From: an uncultured Holophagaceae bacterium | Lineage (GTDB): Bacteria > Acidobacteriota > Holophagae > Holophagales > Holophagaceae | DNA length: 64,000 bases | Direction of reading: 5' to 3' | Assembly: GCA_903937385.1 (NCBI GenBank) | Contig: CAIZZF010000004.1 | Location: 1 to 64,000 of the forward strand | Notes under the pieces: generated by a model | Databases searched by the model: none | The model's input: only the letters and a program-made list of their open reading frames with translations | Told to the model about the DNA's origin: nothing | Made by a program: the position numbers and the translations under genes | Shown: piece by piece, positions 41,969-55,476 of the stretch | Numbering within the stretch: position 1 is the stretch's first letter | How the letters are laid out: each line of letters opens with the position of its first letter

Positions 41969-42847
41969 ATGCTCCATCGAAATGCGCTTTGCGTCGGGAT
42001 CAACCAGTATCAGCATTTCCCGGCCGCAAACCTCAATGGCTGCGTCAACGACGCGCTGAACATGGTTTCGCTGCTGAAGGAAGTGCTGGGCTTCGAGGAT
42101 TCCGACATCACCCTGTTGACGGATCAGGCCGCCACCAAGCTCAACATCATGCACGAGCTTCGGCGCATGGTGGACGGCGCCCTGTCGGGCCGCTACAACC
42201 ACCTGGTCTTCAGCTTCTCCGGCCACGGCACCCAGGTGCCGGACCTCAACCTCGACGAGTTCGACCGGGCCGACGAGGCCTTCTGCCCCTATGATCTCGC
42301 CCCCCTCGGCAGCCAGTGGGACCGCGATCACCTGATCGTGGATGACGAGCTGCACGACCTGCTGGTCCGACTGCCGTCAAGTGTCCTCCTGGAGGTCTTC
42401 CTGGACACCTGCCACAGTGGCACTGGTCTGAGGGCCGCGGACCTGCTCATGGACCGCAGGCCCCGCTACCTGCCGCCGCCCTCGGTCGAGGCCTTCCGCG
42501 ACATCGAGTTCCGGCGCGCCCGACCGGCCCACCAGAAGCTGCTGGAGAAGGGACTGTCCCACCACATCCTCTGGACCGGCTGCAAGGAGAGCCAGACCGC
42601 AGCGGATGCCTTCCTCCAGGGCGACTGGCACGGCGCCTTCACCTGGCACTTCTGCCGGGAGGCCCGGGCCAGCGGCAACCACCTGTCCCGCGCCAAGGTG
42701 CTGGCCAAGGTCCGCTCGGACCTCAGCGCCGGCCACTTCACCCAGACCCCGCAGCTGGACTGCGAGGCCGTCACGCGCCACTCGGTGATCAAGGCCATCG
42801 AGGTGCCGCCCAATGTCCTGCCGCTACCTACGGAGATGCCGAGCTGA
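41969..42847 (+). CDS. Metacaspase-like (orthocaspase) peptidase
   Basis: A 292-residue caspase-fold protein. His86 in FSFSGHGTQ and Cys148 in FLDTCHSGTG form the catalytic dyad of family C14. CVGINQYQHFPAANLNGCVNDA is the usual first strand and helix. Such enzymes cleave after Arg or Lys and in bacteria are linked to stress, cell death or defence. There is no signal peptide or extra domain, and neighbours do not suggest a dedicated system. A 250-base GC-rich spacer precedes it, including a possible AGGGTT ribosome site. Confidence 0.92.
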   Translation: MLHRNALCVGINQYQHFPAANLNGCVNDALNMVSLLKEVLGFEDSDITLLTDQAATKLNIMHELRRMVDGALSGRYNHLVFSFSGHGTQVPDLNLDEFDRADEAFCPYDLAPLGSQWDRDHLIVDDELHDLLVRLPSSVLLEVFLDTCHSGTGLRAADLLMDRRPRYLPPPSVEAFRDIEFRRARPAHQKLLEKGLSHHILWTGCKESQTAADAFLQGDWHGAFTWHFCREARASGNHLSRAKVLAKVRSDLSAGHFTQTPQLDCEAVTRHSVIKAIEVPPNVLPLPTEMPS

Positions 42848-42950: not shown

Positions 42951-44348
<1,398 letters not shown>

Positions 44349-44413
44349 GAGGACCTCCTCGAAAAGCCGGTACGGCAAGGTGAACCCACCTCTTCGTCCC
44401 GGTTCAGGGTTGA

Positions 44414-44497
44414 GGTGAGCGCCGTTCCTGGAGGGAAGTATCCGAGCCTGAGATCCCGCACAGCCGATCTGCCGGGTCCTGCAGCGCTCCTCGGACC
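44414..44497 (-). promoter_or_regulatory. SAH riboswitch upstream of ahcY
   Basis: On the minus strand the leader reads TCCGAGGAGCGCTGC, later CAGGCTCGGA, then AACGGCGCTCACC. TCCGAG pairs with CTCGGA (P1), and GAGCGC can pair with GCGCTC as the pseudoknot. These are the conserved pieces of the SAH riboswitch class, found before ahcY genes, which turns expression on when SAH accumulates. It lies 66 bases before the ahcY ATG. Confidence 0.88.
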
Positions 44498-44539
44498 CAC
44501 TCAGGATAAACGGTCCAGACAGGGATGTCCGGTGGGTTT

Positions 44540-46039: not shown

Positions 46040-46720
46040 ATGCGCATCCTCGATCTCTCCCCGGACCAGCGCCCCCGCGAGCGCCTGCTGGCGGGCCTCG
46101 GCGAGAGCCTAGCCGACGCGGAGCTGCTGGCCCTCCTCTGGGGCACGGGACGCCGGGGCCAGAGCGCCGTTGAGCTGGCCCAGGGTCTCCTCGGTCGCAC
46201 CGGCGGACTGGCGGGCCTCCTGGCCCTGGGCCTCAGCGACTGGCTGGAGCAGCCGGGCCTCGGCCCCGCCAAGGCCGGCCAGCTGTGGGCGGCCCTGGAG
46301 CTGGTGCGGCGCGGCCAGCGCGGCGCCGAGCGCCCCCGCATCACCAGTCCCCGCGCCGCCGGCGACTACCTGCTGCCGCGCTGCCAGGGCTGGACCGAGG
46401 AGCGCTTCGGCCTGCTGGCCCTCAACACCAAAGGCGACCTGCTGGCCGAGCGCATCCTCAGCCAGGGCACCGCCACGGCCACGCTCATCAGCCCCCGTGA
46501 GTTCTTCCGCGAGGCCCTGCGCTACGGCGCCTCCACCGCCCTGGCCTACCACAACCACCCCAGCGGGGACCCCACGCCCAGCCGCGAGGACATCCAGCTC
46601 ACCCGCCGCCTGCAGGCCGCCGGCGAGTCCCTGGGTGTCCCCCTGGCGGACCACCTCATTCTCGGCCAGGACCGCTACCACAGCTTCCGCGCCGCCGAGG
46701 GCTGGGATGCGAGGGGCTGA
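46040..46720 (+). CDS. radC: RadC family JAB-type protein
   Basis: A 226-residue protein with an N-terminal helix-hairpin-helix-like part (LEQPGLGPAKAGQLWAA) and a C-terminal JAB/MPN metalloprotease fold: HNHPSGDPTPSRED carries the His-x-His and Asp of the JAMM motif. RadC proteins are widespread, and a link with competence has been suggested from induction during transformation; their activity is unproven. It lies just 11 bases after the pseudopilin pair. GGAGG precedes the ATG by five bases. A mobile-looking element begins at the base following its stop. Confidence 0.9.
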   Translation: MRILDLSPDQRPRERLLAGLGESLADAELLALLWGTGRRGQSAVELAQGLLGRTGGLAGLLALGLSDWLEQPGLGPAKAGQLWAALELVRRGQRGAERPRITSPRAAGDYLLPRCQGWTEERFGLLALNTKGDLLAERILSQGTATATLISPREFFREALRYGASTALAYHNHPSGDPTPSREDIQLTRRLQAAGESLGVPLADHLILGQDRYHSFRAAEGWDARG

Positions 46721-46853
46721 GAGGTTGTAACAAAACCCGACGTAGCCGCGATGAAGCCAGGCGGGATGCACCGCAAGGAGGCGGGCGTCGCGATGCCGCG
46801 TCACGCTCGCCCGGCACCCCTCGCGCGGCCCCGTGGGGTTTTGTTACCACCTC
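46721..46853. mobile_element. 133 bp MITE-like element after radC
   Basis: Ends GAGGTTGTAACAAAACCC (46721-46738) and GGGTTTTGTTACCACCTC (46836-46853) are inverted repeats with one mismatch. The interior is GC-rich and could fold extensively; it has no gene. The first base follows the RadC TGA directly. No obvious direct duplication was seen at the flanks. Confidence 0.6.
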
Positions 46854-46893
46854 TAAAATCCAGGTAGAGTCAACGGGCGAGGAGCCGACCCCG

Positions 46894-48114
46894 ATGCCAC
46901 TCACAACCTGGGCCACCGACTACGTTCACCTGGTGCTCGCCACCGGGCGCCACGACCCGAACTTCGTGGACGCCTACTACGGACCCCCCGCCTGGAAGGC
47001 CGCCGCCGAGGCCGGGGAGCCCCGGCCCCTGCCTGCTGTGCGGGCCGAGGCGGCACGGCTCCTCGAGGGCGTCGCGGCCGCCGAGGCGGGACCGGGCGAG
47101 GCCGTCCGCCGGGATTACCTGCGGGGCCAGCTCGGCGCCGTGGCGGCTCACCTCGCCCGGCTGGCGGGGCAGGCCTTCACCTTTGACGACGAGGCCGAGG
47201 CCCTGTACCAGGTGCGACCCCCAGTGACGCCGGAGGCCGACTTCGAGGCGGCCCTGGGCCGCCTCGACCAGCTGCTCGCGGGGCCTGGCCCCGTGCAGGA
47301 CCGCTACCAGCGGGCGCGGGAGCGAGTCATCGTGCCCACGGAGCGCGTGGACGCGGTGTTCCAGGCTGCCATCCACGAGGCCCGGGAGCGCACCCGCCAG
47401 CACGCCACGCTGCCCGCCTCGGACCACTTCCGCGTGGAATACGTGCGGGACAAGGCCTGGTCCGCCTACAACTGGTATCAGGGCGGCGGCAGCTCGGTGA
47501 TCCAGGTGAACCTGGACCTGCCCATCACCATCGACCGGGCCCTGGATCTGGCGGCCCACGAAGGCTACCCGGGGCATCATGTCTACAACGCCCTCCTGGA
47601 GCAGCGCTTCGCGCAGGAGCGCGGCTGGGTGGAGTTTACGGTCTATCCCCTGTTCTCGCCCCAGTCCCTCATCGCCGAGGGCACCGCCAACTTCGGCATC
47701 GAGGTGGCCTTTCCCGGCGTGGAGCGGCTGGCCTTCGAGCGGGACGTGCTCTTCCCCCTGGCGGGCCTCGATCCTCAGGACGCGGCGTTCTGGGCGCGGG
47801 TGCAGGCGGAGCTGAAGCTGCTGGCCTTCGCCGACAACGAGGCCGCCCGGGGCTACCTGGACGGCCATCTCGATCGGTCGCAGGCAGAGGCCTACCTCAT
47901 GCGCTACTCCCTGCGCACCGCAGCCCAGGCCGCGCAGCGCCTGCGCTTCATCGAGACCTACCGGAGCTACGTCATCAACTACAACCTGGGCGAGCAGCGG
48001 GTCCGCGACTGGGTGAACCACCAGGGCGGCACCGCCGACCAGCCGACGCGGCGCTGGGCGGTCTTCGTCGAGCTCATCTCCAGCCCGCGGCTGCCAAAGT
48101 CCCTGGGGTTCTAG
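46894..48114 (+). CDS. DUF885 family metallopeptidase-like protein
   Basis: A 406-residue protein. HEGYPGHHVYNALLE near residue 224 is the zinc-site signature of DUF885 proteins, with two His of HEGYPGHH and the downstream Glu in LIAEGTANFG as probable ligands. The family belongs to the gluzincin-type peptidases. There is no signal peptide, so it is likely cytoplasmic, shorter than the roughly 600-residue exported members. Its TAG stop shares CTAG (48111-48114) with the convergent gene's stop. Confidence 0.82.
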   Translation: MPLTTWATDYVHLVLATGRHDPNFVDAYYGPPAWKAAAEAGEPRPLPAVRAEAARLLEGVAAAEAGPGEAVRRDYLRGQLGAVAAHLARLAGQAFTFDDEAEALYQVRPPVTPEADFEAALGRLDQLLAGPGPVQDRYQRARERVIVPTERVDAVFQAAIHEARERTRQHATLPASDHFRVEYVRDKAWSAYNWYQGGGSSVIQVNLDLPITIDRALDLAAHEGYPGHHVYNALLEQRFAQERGWVEFTVYPLFSPQSLIAEGTANFGIEVAFPGVERLAFERDVLFPLAGLDPQDAAFWARVQAELKLLAFADNEAARGYLDGHLDRSQAEAYLMRYSLRTAAQAAQRLRFIETYRSYVINYNLGEQRVRDWVNHQGGTADQPTRRWAVFVELISSPRLPKSLGF

Positions 48115-49073
48115 GCCCGCCGCATCAGGGCCTGGGCCAGGGCCTCAACAAAGCGAGCGCCGCGGGACAGGCGGCCCATCTCGTCGGCCAGGGCCCGGGC
48201 AGCGGCCTCCTCGAGGCGAAGGGGCTCCGGCAGCCCGGCCGCAGCCCAGAAGCCGTAGCGACTGGCCAGCAGCTCGCTGGTCAGGCCCTCCACCAGCTCC
48301 GCGGCCAGGCGGTAGTCCGTGCGGGTCACCAGGCGGATCCAGTGGGAGGACAGCTTCGGCGTCACGAAGGGCACGCGCAGGAGGATGGGCCGCCGGCCCA
48401 TGAGGGCGGCGCTGCGCTGCAGGATCTCCACGCCCGACAGGGCCTCGGGACCCGGCAGGTCCCAGAGGTCGCTGCCCGTCAGGGGCAGGCGGGACGCACG
48501 CACCAGGGCGGCCACCACATCGTCCACGGCGACCGGTTCGCTGCGATGATCCAGCCAAGCCGGCAGCACCATGGCCGGCAGCCGGGCGGCCAGATCCCGC
48601 ACGATGGTCCAGGAAGCGCTCCCGGCGCCCACGATCATGCCCGCCCGCAGTTCCAGGCAGGGCACCTGCCCTGCCCGCAGGGCTTGACCCGTCTCGAGGC
48701 GAGCCCGGAGGTGCGCCGAGGGCGGGCCGGCAGGGGCGACCCCGCCCAGGTAGACGATGCGCTCCACCCCGGCGCGGGCCGCGGCCCTGGAGAACCGCTC
48801 CGCCGTGGCAAGCTCGCGCTCGACCCAGTCCGGGTGCAGCTCCCCCATGCCGTGGATCAGGTAGAAAGCCACCCGGCAGCCGTCCATGGCCCGGGCAAGG
48901 GCTTCGCCATCCTCTGCGTCGCCAGCCACCCAGTCCCGGTCCGGCGAGGTCCGCCGGGCCACCTCGGGGCGCCGCGTCAGACACCGCACCGCCCAGCCGT
49001 CCGCCCGCAGGGAAGAGAAGGCCCGGTTGCCGATGAATCCCGTCGCACCCGTGAGCAGCAGCTGTTCCGTCAT
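48111..49073 (-). CDS. NAD(P)H-binding atypical SDR protein
   Basis: A 320-residue protein with the extended/atypical SDR start LLLTGATGFIGNRAFSSL and YLGGVAP further on. It lacks a clear YxxxK motif and resembles NmrA/YbjT-like proteins that bind NAD(P)H or modify quinones. The start at 49073 places the TGATGFIG motif at residue 8. Its last 83 codons recur in a fragment at 54686-54945, so this locus was duplicated. No catalytic function is assigned. Confidence 0.83.
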   Translation of the reverse strand: MTEQLLLTGATGFIGNRAFSSLRADGWAVRCLTRRPEVARRTSPDRDWVAGDAEDGEALARAMDGCRVAFYLIHGMGELHPDWVERELATAERFSRAAARAGVERIVYLGGVAPAGPPSAHLRARLETGQALRAGQVPCLELRAGMIVGAGSASWTIVRDLAARLPAMVLPAWLDHRSEPVAVDDVVAALVRASRLPLTGSDLWDLPGPEALSGVEILQRSAALMGRRPILLRVPFVTPKLSSHWIRLVTRTDYRLAAELVEGLTSELLASRYGFWAAAGLPEPLRLEEAAARALADEMGRLSRGARFVEALAQALMRRA

Positions 49074-49171
49074 AGGCTCCAGGCTGCCCGGGTGGCCGGT
49101 CGGACGCCAGGGTTTAAACACTCAGCACCCAAGCGACCCGACCCCGCCTACAGCAAGGCTAAGGAGCGGCC

Positions 49172-49237
49172 ATGGCCAACGCCATCTATGACGCCCTGGG
49201 GGACCACCTGCAGCAGCTGCCTAGGATCCCCGAGTGA
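49172..49237 (+). pseudogene. Tiny or broken ORF MANAIYDALGDHLQQLPRIPE
   Basis: An ATG with AAGGAG five bases upstream opens a 21-codon frame ended by TGA at 49235. Beyond that stop the same frame continues sensibly for about 25 codons (IRKALGNRPQGGFSLPP), so a Trp-to-stop change in a small gene is possible. Nothing is recognised. It may instead be a true short peptide or chance. Confidence 0.3.
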
Positions 49238-49341
49238 ATCCGCAAGGCGCTGGGGAACCGTCCACAGGGGGGATTCTCACTCCCACCGGAAAACAGTTCT
49301 CTGAATGACTGCGAAGCAGCGACCAGAGGCCGTGCTCACCG

Positions 49342-49671
49342 TCAATCGAGGATGAACAGCTTGGCGCCCACAGGCGTGGAGGAGCGGTGCGGCTCGGCGT
49401 TGTCTGCGACCTGGTAGCTCATGCCAGGCCTGAGCAGGAACGTGCGACCGTCCTTGAGTTCCGTGTGCAGTTCCCCTTCCAGACAGAGCAGGATGTGGCC
49501 CTTGCCACACCAGTGATCCGCGACGTAGCCGGGGCTGTAGTCCACCATCCGGACCCGGATCGCATCGAAGTGGCAGGTGCGCCAGGTGGCCACCCCGGCC
49601 TCGCCGCTGTGGCGGGTGGGCTCGACCGAGGACCAGTCCGTGGTTCCGAAGGGGATGCCAGTCATGTCCAC
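49342..49671 (-). CDS. DHCW-motif cupin protein
   Basis: A 109-residue cupin-fold protein. VADHWCGKGHILLCLEG contains the DHWC motif after which such proteins are named, with Asp, His and Cys near the metal site, and PHRSSTP supplies a further His. No reaction is established for the family. AAGGAG is placed nine bases before the ATG. The first codons recur in the fused fragment at 54940-54964, which shows that this locus was once duplicated. Confidence 0.85.
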   Translation of the reverse strand: MDMTGIPFGTTDWSSVEPTRHSGEAGVATWRTCHFDAIRVRMVDYSPGYVADHWCGKGHILLCLEGELHTELKDGRTFLLRPGMSYQVADNAEPHRSSTPVGAKLFILD

Positions 49672-49673
49672 GA

Positions 49674-49943
49674 AGGTCTCCTTGGGGAACTAGCGGCAGA
49701 TCGTTTCCCTCTGCAGAAAAAATGATTGAATGTTTTTTCATACAAATGGGCATTTGTTGCTTGATTTTATAATGTCCGGCGCAAAGAATCGTCCTGCGAA
49801 CTCAATAGCTCATTTTGACCCCTTTTCCCCCTTGTTGGTCCGGCGTCCGAGAAGGGGTGGCTTGGTAACAGGCAGGTAGCCCATCTCTACGCCAGCCAAC
49901 CGTCACCTCCACTCAAGGTGACCCCCTGCGCAGGAGGGACGTG
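49674..49943 (+). promoter_or_regulatory. AT-rich leader of the lipase/patatin module
   Basis: The spacer before the hydrolase gene has a perfect -10 hexamer TATAAT at 49768-49773 in an AT-rich stretch that contrasts with the GC-rich genome. No matching -35 hexamer was found at 16-18 bases. No gene is seen. It probably carries the module's promoter. Confidence 0.45.
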
Positions 49944-50933
49944 ATGCATGTCGTCTTCCTCGTCCACGGCATAGGCAAGCACCCTGCCGGTTGGAGTGAA
50001 CCCATCACGACCTTCCTGAAAGAGCGTTATGCGTCCACTGCCGGGAAACCCCTCAAGGAGGATGTCGCCCAGTTCGTGGAGATCACCTACGACGAGGTTT
50101 TCACAGGGTGGCTGAACCGCTGGGCCGAAGCGGGCAAAGACTTGGCCACCTTTTCCGAGGTGGCCTCGGTGGCAGGCTTCCTCAGCAAATTGAGTCAGGA
50201 TGATCCGCTCTACACCCATCTTGCCGATGTGGTCCTGTTCACCTTCTTCCCGCAGATCAGGAGGGAAGTGATCACCTCGGTTCGCACCCAGATGGTCAAT
50301 GCCTTCGCGGGGGATCTCACCTCACAGCTCTCAATCCTGGCTCACAGCCTGGGCACTTCCGTGGCCCACCAAACGGTGGCGAGTTTGAATGACGAGACCC
50401 TGGGGGGCAGCTACCCGCCGAGTCTGCTCAGCTTCGCCAACCTCATCATGGTAGCCAACGTCAGCCGGGTCCTCACGCTGCCTCATCACAACTCGCTCTA
50501 TGAAACGCTGGTGCGGCCAAGCGCTGGTTCCTACTGCGCGAACTACTGGTCCATCCATCACGCGTTGGATGTCCTCACCATGCCCTGGCCCTTCCATCCT
50601 CCCCCCGAGGGCTGGGCGGTTGATCCAGCCACCTACAGAGACACGGAGGTGAAGCACTACGAGAAGGATCCCAATGTTCACGACTTCCTGAACTACCTCA
50701 AGAACCCTAGGATCCACCTCCCACTGCTGGCTCGGATCGCAGGCGTGAGGATGACGGTTCCCGACCTGGAAGCGGCCGTTGCTGCCTATGATCAAGGCCA
50801 CCAGCTGGACGACCTCATCCGAGGCCATCTGGATCCCTACCTGAAGAAGGCCTCCGACCTGGACCAGGGTGAGCTCAAGGACATCCTTGAGCTCATGAAG
50901 TCGTTCCTGGGGGCCTGCGGGGTGAAGCCATGA
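49944..50933 (+). CDS. Alpha/beta-hydrolase (lipase-like) of the patatin module
   Basis: A 329-residue serine hydrolase-like protein. VVFLVHGIGKH at the very start carries the oxyanion HG motif, and Ser135 sits in LAHSLGTSVA, a variant of GxSxG with Ala first. A His late in the protein would complete the triad but cannot be fixed. There is no signal peptide. The C-terminal part is helical. ATG 49944 lies six bases after AGGAGG and is preferred to GTG 49941. The next gene overlaps by four bases (ATGA), so they form an operon with the patatin gene. Confidence 0.78.
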   Translation: MHVVFLVHGIGKHPAGWSEPITTFLKERYASTAGKPLKEDVAQFVEITYDEVFTGWLNRWAEAGKDLATFSEVASVAGFLSKLSQDDPLYTHLADVVLFTFFPQIRREVITSVRTQMVNAFAGDLTSQLSILAHSLGTSVAHQTVASLNDETLGGSYPPSLLSFANLIMVANVSRVLTLPHHNSLYETLVRPSAGSYCANYWSIHHALDVLTMPWPFHPPPEGWAVDPATYRDTEVKHYEKDPNVHDFLNYLKNPRIHLPLLARIAGVRMTVPDLEAAVAAYDQGHQLDDLIRGHLDPYLKKASDLDQGELKDILELMKSFLGACGVKP

Positions 50934-51991
50934 GGGGCCGATCGGTCACGGAGCTCCTCCGAAGCCACCTCCGGGTCCTGCAGATCCTGGGGGCGTTCCT
51001 GGGCTCACCCCTCCTTCACGCCGGGGCTCCAGCTCCCAAGGTGGTGCTGGCGGCCCCGTGTCCCGAGCCCAAGGAGGTGACCGGGTATTACAGCCTCCTG
51101 GGGATCCAGGGGGACCTGTCGAATCCGGAAGTGGGGCTGCTCGCCCTCCGGCTCATCGCCACCGAATGCCACCTGGACACTCACGGGAAGAACGAACCCC
51201 TTCAAAAACTGCTCCAGGAGCTGGGCCCAGCGCTGAGCCATGCCGAGGGTCTCCGGGAGGGTGCCTCCTTTTTCGCAAACCACCGGGATTGGCCAGACTT
51301 CTTCAAGGGGTTTCTTCAACCGCCCCTCGCCAGGCCCGATGAAACGGGCGCACCCAGCGACCACTATTTTGCGGGGACCACCAACGAGGTGGTCATCGCG
51401 GACCCCTCGAGGCCCAGTGCAAGCCAGGCGGCCTTCCTTCTCCGCTGGCAGGCGACCCAGGGCGTGCTCTGTGCCCTGACGAACAACCAGGTCCAGACCC
51501 TGCGCAGCAGTCAGGAGGTCTTCAACGCCCGGCTGACCTTCATCCGTGAAAAGGGCTACCTCCAATACCCCTGGGAAGTGGCCCTCAACCGCGGTGGTGA
51601 CCAGCAGAGCTACCTGGTTCTGGCGCATCCCAGCCTGGCGTTCACCTTGGGTCCGGTGGAAGGGAAGACCTTCCGACAGCTCCGCGAGGCCGCCAGTACT
51701 TCCATCCAACCCACCCTGAATGTGTCCCTCTTCGGCTTCATCCGCTACCCCTTGGAAAAGTCGGCGGAGGGGCGTTACACCGATTCGTACACGCGATATT
51801 GGGGCATCACCTTCGGCATCATGACCGGTCCCAGTGCGGCCAGCCACCCCAGGTGGGGCCCCACCATCGAGCTCCATTACAAGGCCACCTCTTTGGGTTT
51901 CAGCCGCCATGACACCCCAGCGGGGCCCAAGCAGAACTACCTGTTTACGACCCTCAACCTGGCCAAGTATTTAAAGCTCCCGCCGCCATGA
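50930..51991 (+). CDS. Exported protein of unknown function in the patatin module
   Basis: A 353-residue protein with a signal-like N terminus (LLRSHLRVLQILGAFLGSPLLHAGA) that should send it to the envelope. No known domain is recognised. The last 90 residues (SLFGFIRYPLEK, then YWGITFGIMTG, then IELHYKATSLGFS, with ending LNLAKYLKL) alternate polar and hydrophobic residues as outer-membrane beta-strands do. It is translationally coupled to the hydrolase and lies 94 bases before the patatin gene. It may be a surface partner or substrate-access protein. Base composition is less GC-rich than in core genes. Confidence 0.65.
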   Translation: MRGRSVTELLRSHLRVLQILGAFLGSPLLHAGAPAPKVVLAAPCPEPKEVTGYYSLLGIQGDLSNPEVGLLALRLIATECHLDTHGKNEPLQKLLQELGPALSHAEGLREGASFFANHRDWPDFFKGFLQPPLARPDETGAPSDHYFAGTTNEVVIADPSRPSASQAAFLLRWQATQGVLCALTNNQVQTLRSSQEVFNARLTFIREKGYLQYPWEVALNRGGDQQSYLVLAHPSLAFTLGPVEGKTFRQLREAASTSIQPTLNVSLFGFIRYPLEKSAEGRYTDSYTRYWGITFGIMTGPSAASHPRWGPTIELHYKATSLGFSRHDTPAGPKQNYLFTTLNLAKYLKLPPP

Positions 51992-52085
51992 GATGGACCC
52001 CACGACCGGTGACCCGAGCTGCCTCCACCGGTTGAAGGTCTTTCTCCTCAAGGACTCGATTCCACCTCCTCCCTAGGGGTCGCAC

Positions 52086-54689
52086 ATGAGATACCACCCA
52101 CTCCCACCCGACCGGATGCCTGGAGAGCTTGCACAAAGCGAAGCAGACATGATCAAGATCCGCCGCGAGAAAGCGGGCGTTCCGCCTCCTCATCCAAGGG
52201 TGGGATTGGCGCTATCCGGGGGAGGGATTCGCAGCGCGACGTTTTCCCTGGGTGTCCTCCAGGGCTTGGCCCAGCTGAAGCTGCTGAAAAATGTGGACTA
52301 CCTCAGCACGGTCAGCGGAGGAGGCTATACGGGCTCCTTCCTGGGCGGGCTTTTCTGCCGAAAGGGGCCTTCAGAACCCAGCGCTGCCGAGGTCGAGGCT
52401 CAGCTTGGAAGCGCCAACAGGTCAGCGGGTCCCGTCGCAAGCGCCTTTGCCTGGCTACGAGACAATGGGCGCTATCTGACCCCCGGTGGCAGTGGCGACA
52501 GCCTGCTGATGGTGGGCACGGTCCTGAGAAACTGGGTGGCGGTCCAGGTGGTGCTTGGGCTCGTGTTCCTGGCGGGATGCATGGCCCTCGATGGCCTCTT
52601 CCGAGCCGTGACGGGAGGGTTGCCCGAGAGGCTCGTCCAAGGAGGTCTCTATCTCAGTTCGTGGTTCGCACTGGCTCTTGCGGTGCTGGTCTCGGGCGGT
52701 CTGGTGATCGGCTGGGCCCACTGGCTGGTGGACCAGAGCCCTGTCCAGGGACGCAAGGGGATGATTGCTCGCCCAAAATGGGTCCTGATCTTCGCCTTGA
52801 TGGGCGTGGCGGTCCTTCTCGCCATGGGCGCCACCTATCAAACCCTGAATCCGAAGGAGTGGCGTTCCGGTCTCGAGTTCCTGCTGGGTGCGGGAGGCCT
52901 GGCGCTGCTGATCTCCTGGGTGGCCTCGCACAAGGGCCCCGCCGAGGCTCGACGTTTGCTGTCCCGAGCCCTCCGGATGGTCCTCCTCGCCTCACTGGCC
53001 CTGGCCGTCGTGGCCCTGGTGGATAGCGTCGGCTGGGCGATCTGGAAGTCCTGGTTCAAGGAAAGTGACTCGAGCGGTGCCGGAGGGAAGCTCCTTCCGG
53101 CCGTCTGGCGCTGGCTTGAGCAGACGGCCCTGGCCCTCATCAGCCCAAAGGGAATCCCATTGCTGGTCCTCTCCTTTGCGGTCTCGTTCCAGGAGAAACT
53201 CACCAAACTCCTGGGCTCCAAAGGGAGTGACGGCGTGCCCCAAGCCATGGGCAAGGTCCTGGGCAAGGCGCTGGTGGGCCTGCTTGCCATGGGCGTCGCG
53301 GTACTGTGGCTGGGCGTCTTCTCCGCCTTGGCGCATCGCTTGACGTTTGGCCCCGTTCCCTCTGCGGGTTGGACAAGGGTCGCCCTGCCGTCAGCCCAGG
53401 AATGGCTGCTCGCCTTTGCCGCGCTCCTCCTCCTGAACGTCCTGCTGGGTAGGGTGATCGGCTTCCTGAACCTCAGTACGCTCGGCCCCTTCTATACCTC
53501 CGCGATCACCCGGGCCTACCTGGGAGCGAGCAACAAGGAACGGCGCGAAGGCGACGTGTCACCAGATCGGCGCGAATCGGATGACATCCCATGGGAGGAC
53601 TACAAGCCATGGCTGCGCGGCGGCCCCCTCCACCTCATCAATGTCACCCTGAACGAAACGACGGGAGGACGCAGCCAGGTAACCCAGAAGGACCGGAAGG
53701 GCTTGGGACTCGCGGTGGGACCGGCAGGCCTCAGCCTCGGGATTCAGCACCATGCCCTCCAGGAAGCCCCGGAGCCCACCCAGCAGAGGCTGGCTCCTCT
53801 GAACAGCTTCCATGCCTTCTCGGGATCGCTGGCGCAGGACAAGCCGATCTTCAGGCCTGAAGCGCTGACGGTCGGACAATGGGTGGGGGTGAGTGGCGCG
53901 GCCTTCACCACCGGGCTGGGCTCCCGCACCAACCTCTCCTTGAGCATCCTGCTGGGCTTCCTGAATGTCAGACTCGGCTACTGGTGGTGGACGGGGCTGG
54001 CCCCTTCCCGGCGAACGGTCACCCGGCAGGGGAAGGAGACCCCGGCCGTTTCCAGGCTGGATCGCCTCCGCTTGGCTTTCGAGGCCGCTGTCCCCGTGCA
54101 TGCCCATCTGCTGGGGGAGTGGTTCGCACGGTTTCCAGGGACTGCGAGTCGACACTGGTACCTCTCGGACGGGGGGCACTATGAGAACACCGGCCTCCTC
54201 GAGCTGATCCGCAGGCAGCTGCCTCTGATCATCGGGTGCGATAACGGTCAGGATCCGGAGCGCAAACTCGGCGATCTGTCCAACCTGGTGGCAAAAGCCA
54301 GGGTGGACCTCGGGGTGGAGATCACCTACCTCGATCAGGCGGGATTGGATCGGGTCCTGGGCGCGAAGCACAGTCCGGCCTTCGGCTCCGTCGAGGCGCT
54401 GGTGGACCCGAAGGCGCCGGCCCTCGCAGCCCTGGCAGAGCTGCACTACCCAGGCCAGGCGCAACCCGGGATGCTCGTGATCCTGAAACCCACCCTGGGA
54501 TCGGGCCTGCCCCTGGATCTCCTGGCCTACGCAGAGTCGAATCCGGAATTCCCCCAGCAGACCACCATGGATCAGTTCTTCGACGAGACCCAGTGGGAGG
54601 CCTACCGGGCACTGGGGCAGGTCATCGTTCAGGAAACCATCGGCCGCCATCCCGAGTTGTTTGCCCCAACGGGGCCGGCTCATCCCTAG
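52086..54689 (+). CDS. Membrane patatin-like phospholipase with catalytic halves split by helices
   Basis: An 867-residue protein. The patatin start is at residues 40-56 (ALSGGGIRSATFSLGVLQG, oxyanion loop) with the nucleophile Ser77 in STVSGGGYTG, and the catalytic Asp is about residue 695 in YLSDGGHYENTG. Between them lie about eight transmembrane helices (for example VVLGLVFLAGCMALDGLF, ALALAVLVSGGLVIGWAHWL), so the catalytic domain is interrupted by a membrane region of several hundred residues. Related large membrane patatins exist; this would be a phospholipase A of the inner membrane. It is last in the module and its TAG shares CTAG with the duplicated fragment. Confidence 0.82.
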   Translation: MRYHPLPPDRMPGELAQSEADMIKIRREKAGVPPPHPRVGLALSGGGIRSATFSLGVLQGLAQLKLLKNVDYLSTVSGGGYTGSFLGGLFCRKGPSEPSAAEVEAQLGSANRSAGPVASAFAWLRDNGRYLTPGGSGDSLLMVGTVLRNWVAVQVVLGLVFLAGCMALDGLFRAVTGGLPERLVQGGLYLSSWFALALAVLVSGGLVIGWAHWLVDQSPVQGRKGMIARPKWVLIFALMGVAVLLAMGATYQTLNPKEWRSGLEFLLGAGGLALLISWVASHKGPAEARRLLSRALRMVLLASLALAVVALVDSVGWAIWKSWFKESDSSGAGGKLLPAVWRWLEQTALALISPKGIPLLVLSFAVSFQEKLTKLLGSKGSDGVPQAMGKVLGKALVGLLAMGVAVLWLGVFSALAHRLTFGPVPSAGWTRVALPSAQEWLLAFAALLLLNVLLGRVIGFLNLSTLGPFYTSAITRAYLGASNKERREGDVSPDRRESDDIPWEDYKPWLRGGPLHLINVTLNETTGGRSQVTQKDRKGLGLAVGPAGLSLGIQHHALQEAPEPTQQRLAPLNSFHAFSGSLAQDKPIFRPEALTVGQWVGVSGAAFTTGLGSRTNLSLSILLGFLNVRLGYWWWTGLAPSRRTVTRQGKETPAVSRLDRLRLAFEAAVPVHAHLLGEWFARFPGTASRHWYLSDGGHYENTGLLELIRRQLPLIIGCDNGQDPERKLGDLSNLVAKARVDLGVEITYLDQAGLDRVLGAKHSPAFGSVEALVDPKAPALAALAELHYPGQAQPGMLVILKPTLGSGLPLDLLAYAESNPEFPQQTTMDQFFDETQWEAYRALGQVIVQETIGRHPELFAPTGPAHP

Positions 54690-54964
54690 GCACGCCGCAT
54701 CAGGGCGCCCGCCAGGGCCTCCATGAGCTGAGCGCCGCGGGACAGGCAGCCCCCCTCGTCGGCCAGGCCCCGGGCAGCGGCAGCCTCGAGGTGAGCGGGC
54801 TCCGGCAGCCCGGCCGCAGCCCAGAAGCCGTAGCGGCTGGCCAGCAGCTCGCTGGTCAGGCCCTCCACCAGCTCCGCGGCGAGGCGGTAGTCCGTGCGGG
54901 TCACCAGGTGGATCCAGTGCGAGGACAGCTTCGGCGTGACGAAGGAGATGCTCGTCATTTCCAC
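54686..54964 (-). pseudogene. Duplicated 3' fragment of the SDR gene fused to a cupin gene start
   Basis: The 92-codon frame starts MEMTSIS, matching the first codons of the DHCW cupin (MDMTGIP), then jumps at a shared TTCG into the last 83 codons of the 48111-49073 gene (VTPKLSSHWI...MRRA) at roughly 85 percent amino acid identity. It thus looks like a second copy of the 48111-49690 locus from which about 1.3 kb was deleted. The fused frame is open, but a functional protein is unlikely. Confidence 0.8.
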
Positions 54965-54976
54965 GAAGGTCTCCTT

Positions 54977-55064
54977 TGGCGGAGGGTGAGGGATTCGAAC
55001 CCCCGAACGCTTGCGCGTCTCCAGTTTTCAAGACTGGCGCCATCAACCACTCGGCCAACCCTCC
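54977..55064 (-). tRNA. tRNA-Ser (anticodon TGA)
   Basis: The minus strand folds into a complete tRNA with a long variable arm typical of serine: acceptor GGAGGGT/ACCCTCC, anticodon loop around CTTGAAA giving TGA, T loop GGTTCGAATCC, and encoded CCA (54977-54979). It reads UCA and related serine codons. The duplicated locus ends at its 3' side. Confidence 0.95.
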
Positions 55065-55147
55065 GTGCCTCCATCTTGAAGGGAGGGGGCGTCCCCCGGC
55101 AAGAAGCCTTGTGCCAGTCCGCCTTGACCGGTAATCTAGAAAGCCTT

Positions 55148-55240
<93 letters not shown>

Positions 55241-55243
55241 AGT

Positions 55244-55272
55244 GAAGCCGCCTGCTGGCGGCTTCTTTATTT
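55244..55272 (+). terminator. Terminator of tRNA-Ser(GCT)
   Basis: GAAGCCGCC and GGCGGCTTC pair perfectly around TGCT and are followed by TTTATTT, a standard intrinsic terminator three bases after the tRNA. Confidence 0.85.
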
Positions 55273-55273
55273 G

Positions 55274-55299
55274 GCGGAGAGAGGGGGATTCGAAGTCAC
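55274..55299 (-). repeat. Inverted copy 1 of the tRNA-Ser(GCT) 3' end
   Basis: The 26 bases recur exactly at 55451-55476. On the minus strand they reproduce the T arm and acceptor end of tRNA-Ser(GCT) (55218-55240 matches 55272-55294 inverted). Such copies usually stem from integration at a tRNA or from att-like recombination. Confidence 0.75.
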
Positions 55300-55450
55300 A
55301 GCAGCACTGGCAGGTAGGGCCCGCTGGAGGCAGTCCAGTGGACTGCCGGAAGCGATCAGGCCCGTGCCAGTGATGCGTGCGGCCGGAGGGGACGCCGCGC
55401 AGTGGTGGCCCCGGAGGGAATCCCCCTCCATCGAATTGCCACACTCACCA
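55300..55450. other. Segment between tRNA 3'-end copies
   Basis: No gene is credible here. It contains the hairpin GGCAGTCC-AGT-GGACTGCC. Reading frames crossing it give only tRNA-derived artefact peptides. It might be a remnant of a small element once integrated at the tRNA. Confidence 0.45.
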
Positions 55451-55476
55451 GCGGAGAGAGGGGGATTCGAAGTCAC
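55451..55476 (-). repeat. Inverted copy 2 of the tRNA-Ser(GCT) 3' end
   Basis: Exact direct repeat of 55274-55299, 177 bases away. It overlaps the last codon of the ggt gene. Confidence 0.75.

What the first reader, a model, noticed from the sequence alone, without database searches (positions are those of the whole stretch)
48111..54976. Three-gene lipase/exported protein/membrane patatin module between a locus and its deleted duplicate beside tRNA-Ser
An operon encoding an alpha/beta-hydrolase, an exported protein and an 867-residue membrane patatin lies between the SDR-cupin locus (48111-49690) and a shrunken copy of it (54686-54976), both on the minus strand. The copy ends exactly where the tRNA-Ser(TGA) 3' end begins. 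Direct repeats plus a tRNA border are typical of inserted or amplified DNA. Two hydrolases plus an envelope protein could form a phospholipid-attacking, defence or toxin-like system not yet described.
Basis: partly seen in the sequence, partly recalled or inferred. Interest (0 to 1): 0.82.

Follow-up and report, generated by a model that had tools for sequence, protein, structure and literature searches.

The report
Patchily kept bacterial membrane-phospholipase operon
In a little-known group of uncultured bacteria, a three-gene operon for two fat-cleaving enzymes and an exported partner sits in a fast-changing chromosomal pocket; it is probably not an inserted island, and its main enzyme is predicted to have the fold of an animal phospholipase, embedded in the bacterial membrane.

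Summary
In detail: hydrolase (49941-50933), exported protein (50930-51991) and 867-aa membrane patatin (52086-54689) lie between an SDR-cupin locus and a deleted 90%-identical copy beside tRNA-Ser(TGA). The island reading mostly fails. In G038 the intact cupin abuts the same tRNA (in G039 its 3' end, at a contig edge), so that border looks ancestral; no integrase or tRNA-end repeat brackets the block. Of the four closest relatives, G037 has all three genes at this site, G038 the patatin only, G039 and G014 none. Species tree and divergence favour ancestral presence plus losses; the second SDR-cupin copy is seen only in the window's genome.
The module is real: the same families form patatin-hydrolase-exported operons elsewhere in G036 and G041 (G043 as far as its contigs reach), and hydrolase and exported genes occur in the same 7 of 47 genomes. 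The patatin family is widespread in bacteria and mostly stands alone. Its model matches human cytosolic PLA2 (Z 22.5) better than plant patatin (14.2), with about eight membrane helices inserted in the catalytic domain; no control protein was run. Best guess: envelope phospholipid turnover. No direct defence or toxin evidence was found.

The parts
46894..48114 (+). DUF885-like gene, left flank of the variable pocket; its stop codon overlaps that of the SDR (CTAG)
   Evidence: Pfam DUF885 only E 0.084, below cut-off; matched in 34 of 47 genomes of the genus at E <= 0.001, two of them weakly
48111..49121 (-). intact SDR/NAD(P)-binding gene, the extra (left) copy
   Evidence: Pfam NAD_binding_10 E 2e-12; a second copy at this locus was seen only in G000 among the five close genomes
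49342..49671 (-). DHCW-motif cupin gene, extra (left) copy
   Evidence: NCBIfam NF038084
49733..49940 (+). upstream region of the module; 49745-49828 is also kept upstream of the lone patatin in G038
49941..50933 (+). alpha/beta-hydrolase (lipase/esterase-like), no signal peptide seen by eye; Ser136, Asp210, His247 invariant in 7 of 7 aligned relatives (itself included)
   Evidence: DUF676 E 0.001, 19.1 bits against 20.3; profile hit to a class 3 lipase E 0.0013; residues
50930..51991 (+). exported protein with a Sec-type signal by eye; orphan family with a YPWE motif (FPWE in G245) and a C-terminal half that looks rich in beta strands
   Evidence: no Pfam match at E <= 0.1 and no NCBIfam or PADLOC match at E <= 0.01; homologues next to the hydrolase; structure prediction failed, pLDDT 35
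52086..54689 (+). membrane patatin with a cPLA2-like predicted fold; Ser77, Asp695, Arg49; about 8 membrane helices between residues 136 and 455
   Evidence: Pfam Patatin 30.5 bits (cut-off 27.7); model pLDDT 79.9, pTM 0.83; fold match; the three residues invariant in 42 of 42
54686..54976 (-). deleted SDR-cupin copy at the orthologous place (cupin start fused to SDR end), 92-codon open frame
54977..55064 (-). tRNA-Ser(TGA)
55148..55240 (+). tRNA-Ser(GCT)
55274..55294 (-). inverted exact copy of the tRNA-Ser(GCT) 3' end (scar-like), outside the block
55451..55471 (-). second inverted exact copy of the tRNA-Ser(GCT) 3' end, outside the block

Best explanation
A chromosomal three-gene lipid-hydrolase operon in a hypervariable pocket between a DUF885-like gene and a tRNA-Ser pair. 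History (inferred from comparison): the operon was already between the DUF885 and SDR genes in the ancestor of five close Holophagaceae species, was lost in G039 and G014 (one simple route is deletion between the two CTAG stop-codon overlaps) and partly in G038; in the window's lineage the SDR-cupin pair was duplicated to the other side of the operon and the original copy decayed. Function (inferred): the patatin is an inner-membrane phospholipase or lysophospholipase with a cPLA2-like catalytic fold facing the cytoplasm. The hydrolase is a cytoplasmic lipase/esterase that takes the next deacylation step. The exported protein is their periplasmic or outer-membrane partner. Together they turn over or remodel envelope phospholipid. 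Shown: gene content, synteny, purifying selection, co-occurrence, conserved catalytic residues, predicted fold. Not shown: activity, substrate, location, physical interaction.
For: Synteny: G037 carries all three genes in the same order at the same place, G038 the patatin only, G039 and G014 none. Species tree (((G000,G038),G039),G014),G037 from 7,676 columns of one region, supports 1.0, 0.998, 0.963. Module divergence follows the species: patatin dS 0.21 to G038 and 0.32 to G037, against 0.23 and 0.34 for the flanking DUF885 gene; dN/dS of the module 0.20-0.29. Recurrence: patatin-hydrolase-exported operons in G036 and G041, and patatin-hydrolase in G043 with its exported gene on another contig. 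Hydrolase and exported gene occur in the same 7 of the genus's 47 genomes, and as a pair in G245 of another family. Patatin and the pair co-occur: 6 of 7 genomes with the pair against 3 of 40 without, Fisher p 5e-5, not corrected for kinship. Ser77, Asp695 and Arg49 in 42 of 42 patatins; hydrolase Ser, Asp, His in 7 of 7. Model against cPLA2: Z 22.1-22.5 over 363-406 residues. Loops assigned to the cytoplasm carry 4, 1, 4 K+R against 1, 1, 2, 1 on the other side.
Against: G038 has lost the pair beside the patatin (it has a different pair at C20), G028 has a pair with an in-frame TGA and no patatin, and G245 has a pair with no patatin in the 13 kb read, so the patatin is not obligatory. Most patatins in other bacteria stand alone: of 80 public loci, hydrolase relatives were found in 2 and exported relatives in 1, and both loci belong to this genus. 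The module's dN/dS (0.20-0.29) is higher than the flanking gene's (0.12-0.15), so its constraint is weaker. Two independent gains need fewer events than one gain plus two losses. The species tree comes from one chromosomal region; a single-gene tree did not recover the same order (weak supports). The cPLA2 sequence match is weak and fell from E 0.016 to 0.1 with the larger profile, level with VipD. No biochemical evidence exists, the exported protein could not be modelled, and topology rests on hydropathy, the model and a weak charge bias.
Confidence: 0.5

Rival explanations
1. An island integrated at tRNA-Ser, bounded by the direct repeat and the tRNA 3' end.
For: Presence/absence between relatives; scar-like tRNA-Ser(GCT) 3' ends at 55274-55471; an Arm-DNA-bind/phage integrase gene beside a tRNA-Ser scar in G037 (L045:16372-17658); module GC 0.59-0.66 against up to 0.76 in the left flank.
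Against: In G038 the cupin abuts the complete tRNA while the patatin lies between DUF885 and SDR; in G039, without the module, the cupin abuts the tRNA 3' end, seen at a contig edge. In G037 too the module lies between DUF885 and SDR. No tRNA-end copy at the left edge. No integrase among the block's genes. The repeats are host SDR-cupin genes. Module dS matches the flank.
Confidence: 0.07
2. The three genes are a conflict system: anti-phage abortive lysis, or a lipase toxin with an exported immunity protein.
For: Patchy presence, loss, and a decayed pair in a genome without the patatin. Patatin-fold proteins serve as CBASS effectors (recalled); CapE matches the model at Z 16.9. G046's related patatin lies near HNH and NucS-type nucleases that match PADLOC models. 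A caspase-domain gene matching PADLOC lies 6 kb left of the pocket.
Against: No PADLOC match for the three proteins. No hydrolase relative in a pattern scan of viral contigs or in plasmid records, no patatin relative in phage records; the exported protein was not searched there, nor the hydrolase in phage records. No cyclase or sensor gene within the operon; the pocket's other genes are SDR, cupin and tRNA. T6SS genes were not searched for.
Confidence: 0.1
3. A loose set: a stand-alone membrane patatin plus an independent hydrolase-exported pair that happen to be neighbours, all doing ordinary lipid catabolism.
For: Patatin usually alone elsewhere; pair without patatin beside it in G038:C20, G028 and G245; 94-bp gap between exported gene and patatin in the window.
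Against: Tight patatin-hydrolase-exported operons with the opposite order at another locus, and the association across 47 genomes.
Confidence: 0.25
4. The site was empty in the ancestor and the module was gained twice, or moved between G037-like and G000/G038-like lineages.
For: Fewer events on the species tree; the empty sites of G014 and G039 look the same at the junction.
Against: Both gains must hit the same stop-codon junction, and G000-G037 module dS (0.32-0.34) equals that of the flanking gene (0.34), which shows no recent transfer.
Confidence: 0.25

Closest known systems
Patatin-like phospholipases (Pfam PF01734; PlpD, CapE, plant patatin)
   Same: GGGxR motif (GGG in 41 of 42, one gap; Arg in 42), nucleophile Ser and DGG Asp in 42 of 42; window protein above the Pfam cut-off; fold matches PlpD Z 17.8, CapE 16.9, patatin 14.2
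   Different: Profile covers only the first 65 of 191 positions in the window protein; catalytic domain interrupted by a membrane-helix insert of about 300 residues; more residues align with cPLA2 than with plant patatin
Human cytosolic phospholipase A2 (group IV; Pfam PF01735 PLA2_B)
   Same: Best structural match: Z 22.1-22.5, 363-406 residues, rmsd 4.0-4.3; top sequence match in solved structures with the 8-sequence profile, E 0.016, VipD close behind at 0.02
   Different: Only 15-16% identity; with the 42-sequence profile E 0.1; PF01735 matches 6 of 42 family members, best E 0.03, and not the window protein; bacterial, with membrane helices
DUF676/lipase class 3 type alpha/beta-hydrolases
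   Same: Nucleophile elbow AHSLG, Ser-Asp-His order, weak profile matches
   Different: Below the Pfam cut-off; in the genus found only in genomes that also have the orphan exported protein
Patatin plus outer-membrane-like protein pairs (G046 L050, groundwater Acidobacteria L065)
   Same: Same membrane patatin family, overlapping with an exported gene
   Different: The exported protein looks like a different family: profile comparison probability 1%; no hydrolase beside it

Membership tests
Patatin family (PF01734) | Profile match above the curated cut-off | tested here: met
   30.5 bits against 27.7; 32 of 42 relatives match at E <= 1
Patatin family (PF01734) | Ser-Asp catalytic dyad in the expected motifs | tested here: met
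   Ser77 and Asp695 in 42 of 42 sequences; motif positions recalled
Patatin family (PF01734) | Phospholipase/acyl hydrolase activity | not testable with these tools
   needs an assay
cPLA2 / PLA2_B (PF01735) | Profile match above the curated cut-off | tested here: not met
   No match of the window protein at E <= 1; 6 of 42 relatives, best E 0.03
cPLA2 / PLA2_B (PF01735) | Catalytic-domain fold | tested here: met
   Z 22.5, 363 residues, rmsd 4.0, above PlpD 17.8 and patatin 14.2; a predicted model, Foldseek's own best E 1.2e-3, and no control protein was run
Integrative element at a tRNA gene | Integrase gene in the block | tested here: not met
   Genes identified in 49690-54690 are the three named
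Integrative element at a tRNA gene | Copies of the tRNA 3' end at both edges | tested here: not met
   All window copies with up to 3 mismatches lie at 54978-55471
Integrative element at a tRNA gene | Empty site with intact tRNA in relatives | tested here: inconclusive
   Empty in G039 and G014, but the junction is DUF885/SDR, not the tRNA; complete tRNA seen in G014, only its 3' end in G039
Known anti-phage defence systems | PADLOC model match of the three proteins | tested here: not met
   0 families for each at E <= 0.01
T6SS lipase effector with immunity protein | T6SS genes or effector motifs linked | not tested
   no search for T6SS genes was run

The most novel reading that the evidence does not exclude
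The widespread bacterial membrane patatins are a prokaryotic branch of the cPLA2 fold with a transmembrane domain built into the catalytic domain, and in Holophagaceae they have recruited a dedicated lipase and an orphan exported protein to form a self-contained envelope-lipid (or conflict) system.
Probability: 0.2. Interest if true: 0.65.

Novelty: new variant of a known kind. Interest (0 to 1): 0.42.

Why it matters
A 2020 PLA2 review (PMC7603386, passages read) calls the cPLA2 family 'present only in vertebrates'. If the predicted fold holds against controls, a large uncharacterised bacterial family shares that architecture inside a membrane protein and could be tested directly. The exported protein is an orphan family with a fixed enzyme partner, which gives a first handle on its role. 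The locus also shows that a tRNA border plus direct repeats can mislead: here they come from a gene duplication beside a tRNA neighbour that looks ancestral.

Tried and rejected
Structure of the exported protein from six sequences: pLDDT 35, discarded. Homology of the exported protein to the outer-membrane-like partners in G046 and L065: not supported, probability 1%. Dropped before counts: of 11 of 47 genomes with a patatin match, G009 and G017 had only short weak matches and were left out of the 9 'full-length'; the weak exported-protein hit in G315 (E 7e-4, 100 residues; its open frames showed nothing of the kind by eye); weak hydrolase hits in G106 and G136 and a second weak one in G000. 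The exported-protein profile misses diverged members (it missed G245's, found by adjacency), so its counts, 7 of 77 in the family and 3 of 396 in the phylum, are lower bounds. A hydrolase search in the class of G245 found only G245, 1 of 41. Dating the duplication: the copies differ by dS 0.14 over 85 codons and the 260-nt tree is unresolved, so only 'seen in G000 alone among the five' is claimed. Single-gene species tree: weakly supported and in another order. Viral structure library: no match at E <= 0.001. Promoter scan: none found. The 42-sequence profile against solved structures was topped by membrane helices, with cPLA2 at E 0.1. Literature: search listings showed no title or abstract on this module; I read passages only of PMC7603386 and PMC12871566; the library lacks most subscription journals.
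Full report
What is there. The block holds three plus-strand genes: an alpha/beta-hydrolase (330 aa), an exported protein (353 aa, 4-bp overlap) and a membrane patatin (867 aa, 94 bp further on). They are flanked on the left by minus-strand SDR and DHCW-cupin genes and on the right by a deleted copy of that pair that runs into tRNA-Ser(TGA). The copy is 90% identical over 260 nt and carries about 40 nt of cupin start. It is an internal-deletion derivative, not chance.

Where it is. The nearest named records are uncultured Holophagaceae (Acidobacteriota). I searched all 47 held genomes of the genus, the window's own genome G000 included, with each of six proteins. Five genomes form the close clade: G000, G038, G039, G014, G037 (98-99% in one conserved protein). 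A tree from 7,676 aligned columns of one chromosomal region gives (((G000,G038),G039),G014),G037 with supports 1.0, 0.998 and 0.963; a tree of one gene gave another, weakly supported order.

Comparison of the site. G039 and G014: the DUF885-like gene and the SDR converge with overlapping stop codons (CTAG) and nothing between them; neither genome matches any of the three proteins elsewhere. G037: all three module genes, same order, about 87% identical, between those two genes. G038: only the patatin between them; bases matching 49829-52074 are missing. In G038 the cupin start abuts the complete tRNA-Ser(TGA) much as the remnant does in G000. In G039 the cupin start abuts the tRNA 3' end, of which only a short stretch is seen before the sequence changes at the contig edge. 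In G014 the cupin is absent and the SDR lies about 90 bp from the tRNA. In G037 the contig shows no tRNA there; a phage-type integrase gene lies next to a tRNA-Ser scar further right. So the right-hand remnant of G000 is the original copy in place, the tRNA border looks ancestral, and the intact left copy is the extra one. The DUF885-to-tRNA interval is 6.9, 5.8, 3.1 and 1.1 kb in G000, G038, G039 and G014: a turnover pocket. Of the 30 DUF885 loci returned, 26 lie outside this clade, and none of the 26 had the SDR, module or cupin within the 1.5 kb read on each side (some are cut by contig ends).

Gain or loss. Ancestral presence with losses in G039 and G014 costs more events than two gains, but two gains would have to hit the same junction, and the module's synonymous divergence matches the flanking gene (patatin 0.21 and 0.32, DUF885 0.23 and 0.34, against G038 and G037), which argues against recent transfer. 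The module is under weaker constraint than that gene (dN/dS 0.20-0.29 against 0.12-0.15). I favour losses; this is not settled.

Is it a module? Hydrolase relatives occur in 7 of 47 genomes. Exported-protein relatives occur in 7 of 77 genomes of the family, the same seven, and with the single protein as query in only 2 of 47. They are adjacent in G000, G037, G036, G041, G038:C20 and G028 (the last with an in-frame TGA); in G043 the hydrolase contig ends and the exported gene is on another contig. The patatin is adjacent in five of the seven, in the order hydrolase-exported-patatin (G000, G037) or patatin-hydrolase-exported (G036, G041; G043 as far as the contig reaches). The two versions are 41-42%, 26-31% and 21-22% identical for patatin, hydrolase and exported protein. 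Patatin matches occur in 11 of 47 genomes, two of them short and weak; of the 9 left, 6 are among the 7 genomes with the pair and 3 among the 40 others (Fisher p 5e-5, not corrected for kinship). G245, in another family of the phylum, has the pair without a patatin in the 13 kb read; its exported protein matches the profile at E 3e-5 in a one-to-one comparison. In the phylum sample the hydrolase profile matched 5 of 396 genomes, two of them weakly, and the exported profile 3 of 396, one weakly.

The patatin. Next to these 80, hydrolase relatives were found in 2 and exported relatives in 1, both loci being this genus; among 85 loci the neighbours otherwise vary (rough gene calls, and contig ends limit some). 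So the patatin is a common, mostly stand-alone bacterial protein. The AlphaFold model from 42 sequences has pLDDT 79.9 and pTM 0.83. Realignment of Foldseek's best 1000 chains gives human cPLA2 first (Z 22.1-22.5, 363-406 residues), then PlpD 17.8, CapE 16.9, a lipase/ligand complex 15.5, VipD 14.5, plant patatin 14.2 and ExoU 13.5. Foldseek's own best E was only 1.2e-3, larger targets can score higher, and no control protein was folded. By sequence it is a patatin, with PLA2_B seen weakly in 6 of 42 and cPLA2 delta at E 0.016 or 0.1 depending on the profile. The catalytic residues are invariant. Helices between residues 136 and 455 form the membrane part; the charge of the loops weakly favours cytoplasmic catalytic halves.

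Function. I infer envelope phospholipid turnover from two lipid hydrolases, one in the inner membrane, operonic with an exported protein. In G036 the operon follows sensor-kinase and response-regulator genes (Pfam), and the genes before it in G041 look alike, which fits a regulated envelope response. No defence model matched the three proteins. A pattern scan of viral contigs and the plasmid records held no hydrolase relative, and phage records no patatin relative; the exported protein was not searched in these. The patatin has matches in 41 plasmid records, all under 60% identity.

Verdict. The most interesting by-product is the cPLA2-like membrane patatin family, which needs controls before it can be claimed.

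Noticed in passing
window 55218-55471: Exact 3' ends of tRNA-Ser(GCT): one in the gene, two inverted copies at 55274-55294 and 55451-55471, near a terminator-like hairpin (55244-55265); similar copies in G038. Looks like scars of older integrations.
   Followed up: partly
L045:15938-17658 (G037): A phage-type integrase gene with Arm-DNA-bind domain next to a tRNA-Ser scar: probably an integrative element at this hotspot in a relative.
   Followed up: partly
window 44410-44498: SAH riboswitch (Rfam RF01057, 48.3 bits) upstream of the 475-aa gene 42951-44378, probably S-adenosylhomocysteinase (not scanned).
   Followed up: no
window 41969-42847: Caspase-domain protein (Pfam Peptidase_C14, E 5e-28; PADLOC caspase); the same frame is seen in G038, G037 and G039.
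   Followed up: no
L050:5012-11181 (G046): Membrane patatin overlapping a 254-aa outer-membrane-like protein, near HNH and NucS-type nuclease genes matching PADLOC models; the same patatin/outer-membrane-like pair in L065.
   Followed up: partly
L044:5854-7280 (G038) and L047:481-1907 (G039): Two extra genes (one with a weak DUF4410 match below cut-off, one DUF2846, G038's copies) between SDR and cupin, absent in G000: more turnover in the same pocket.
   Followed up: no
window 54686-54964: The remnant copy is still an open 92-codon frame with the cupin's upstream region, directly behind the tRNA; whether it is expressed is unknown.
   Followed up: no
window 46720-46854: 31-nt inverted repeat, 87% complementary, 73 nt apart, upstream of the DUF885-like gene.
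   Followed up: no
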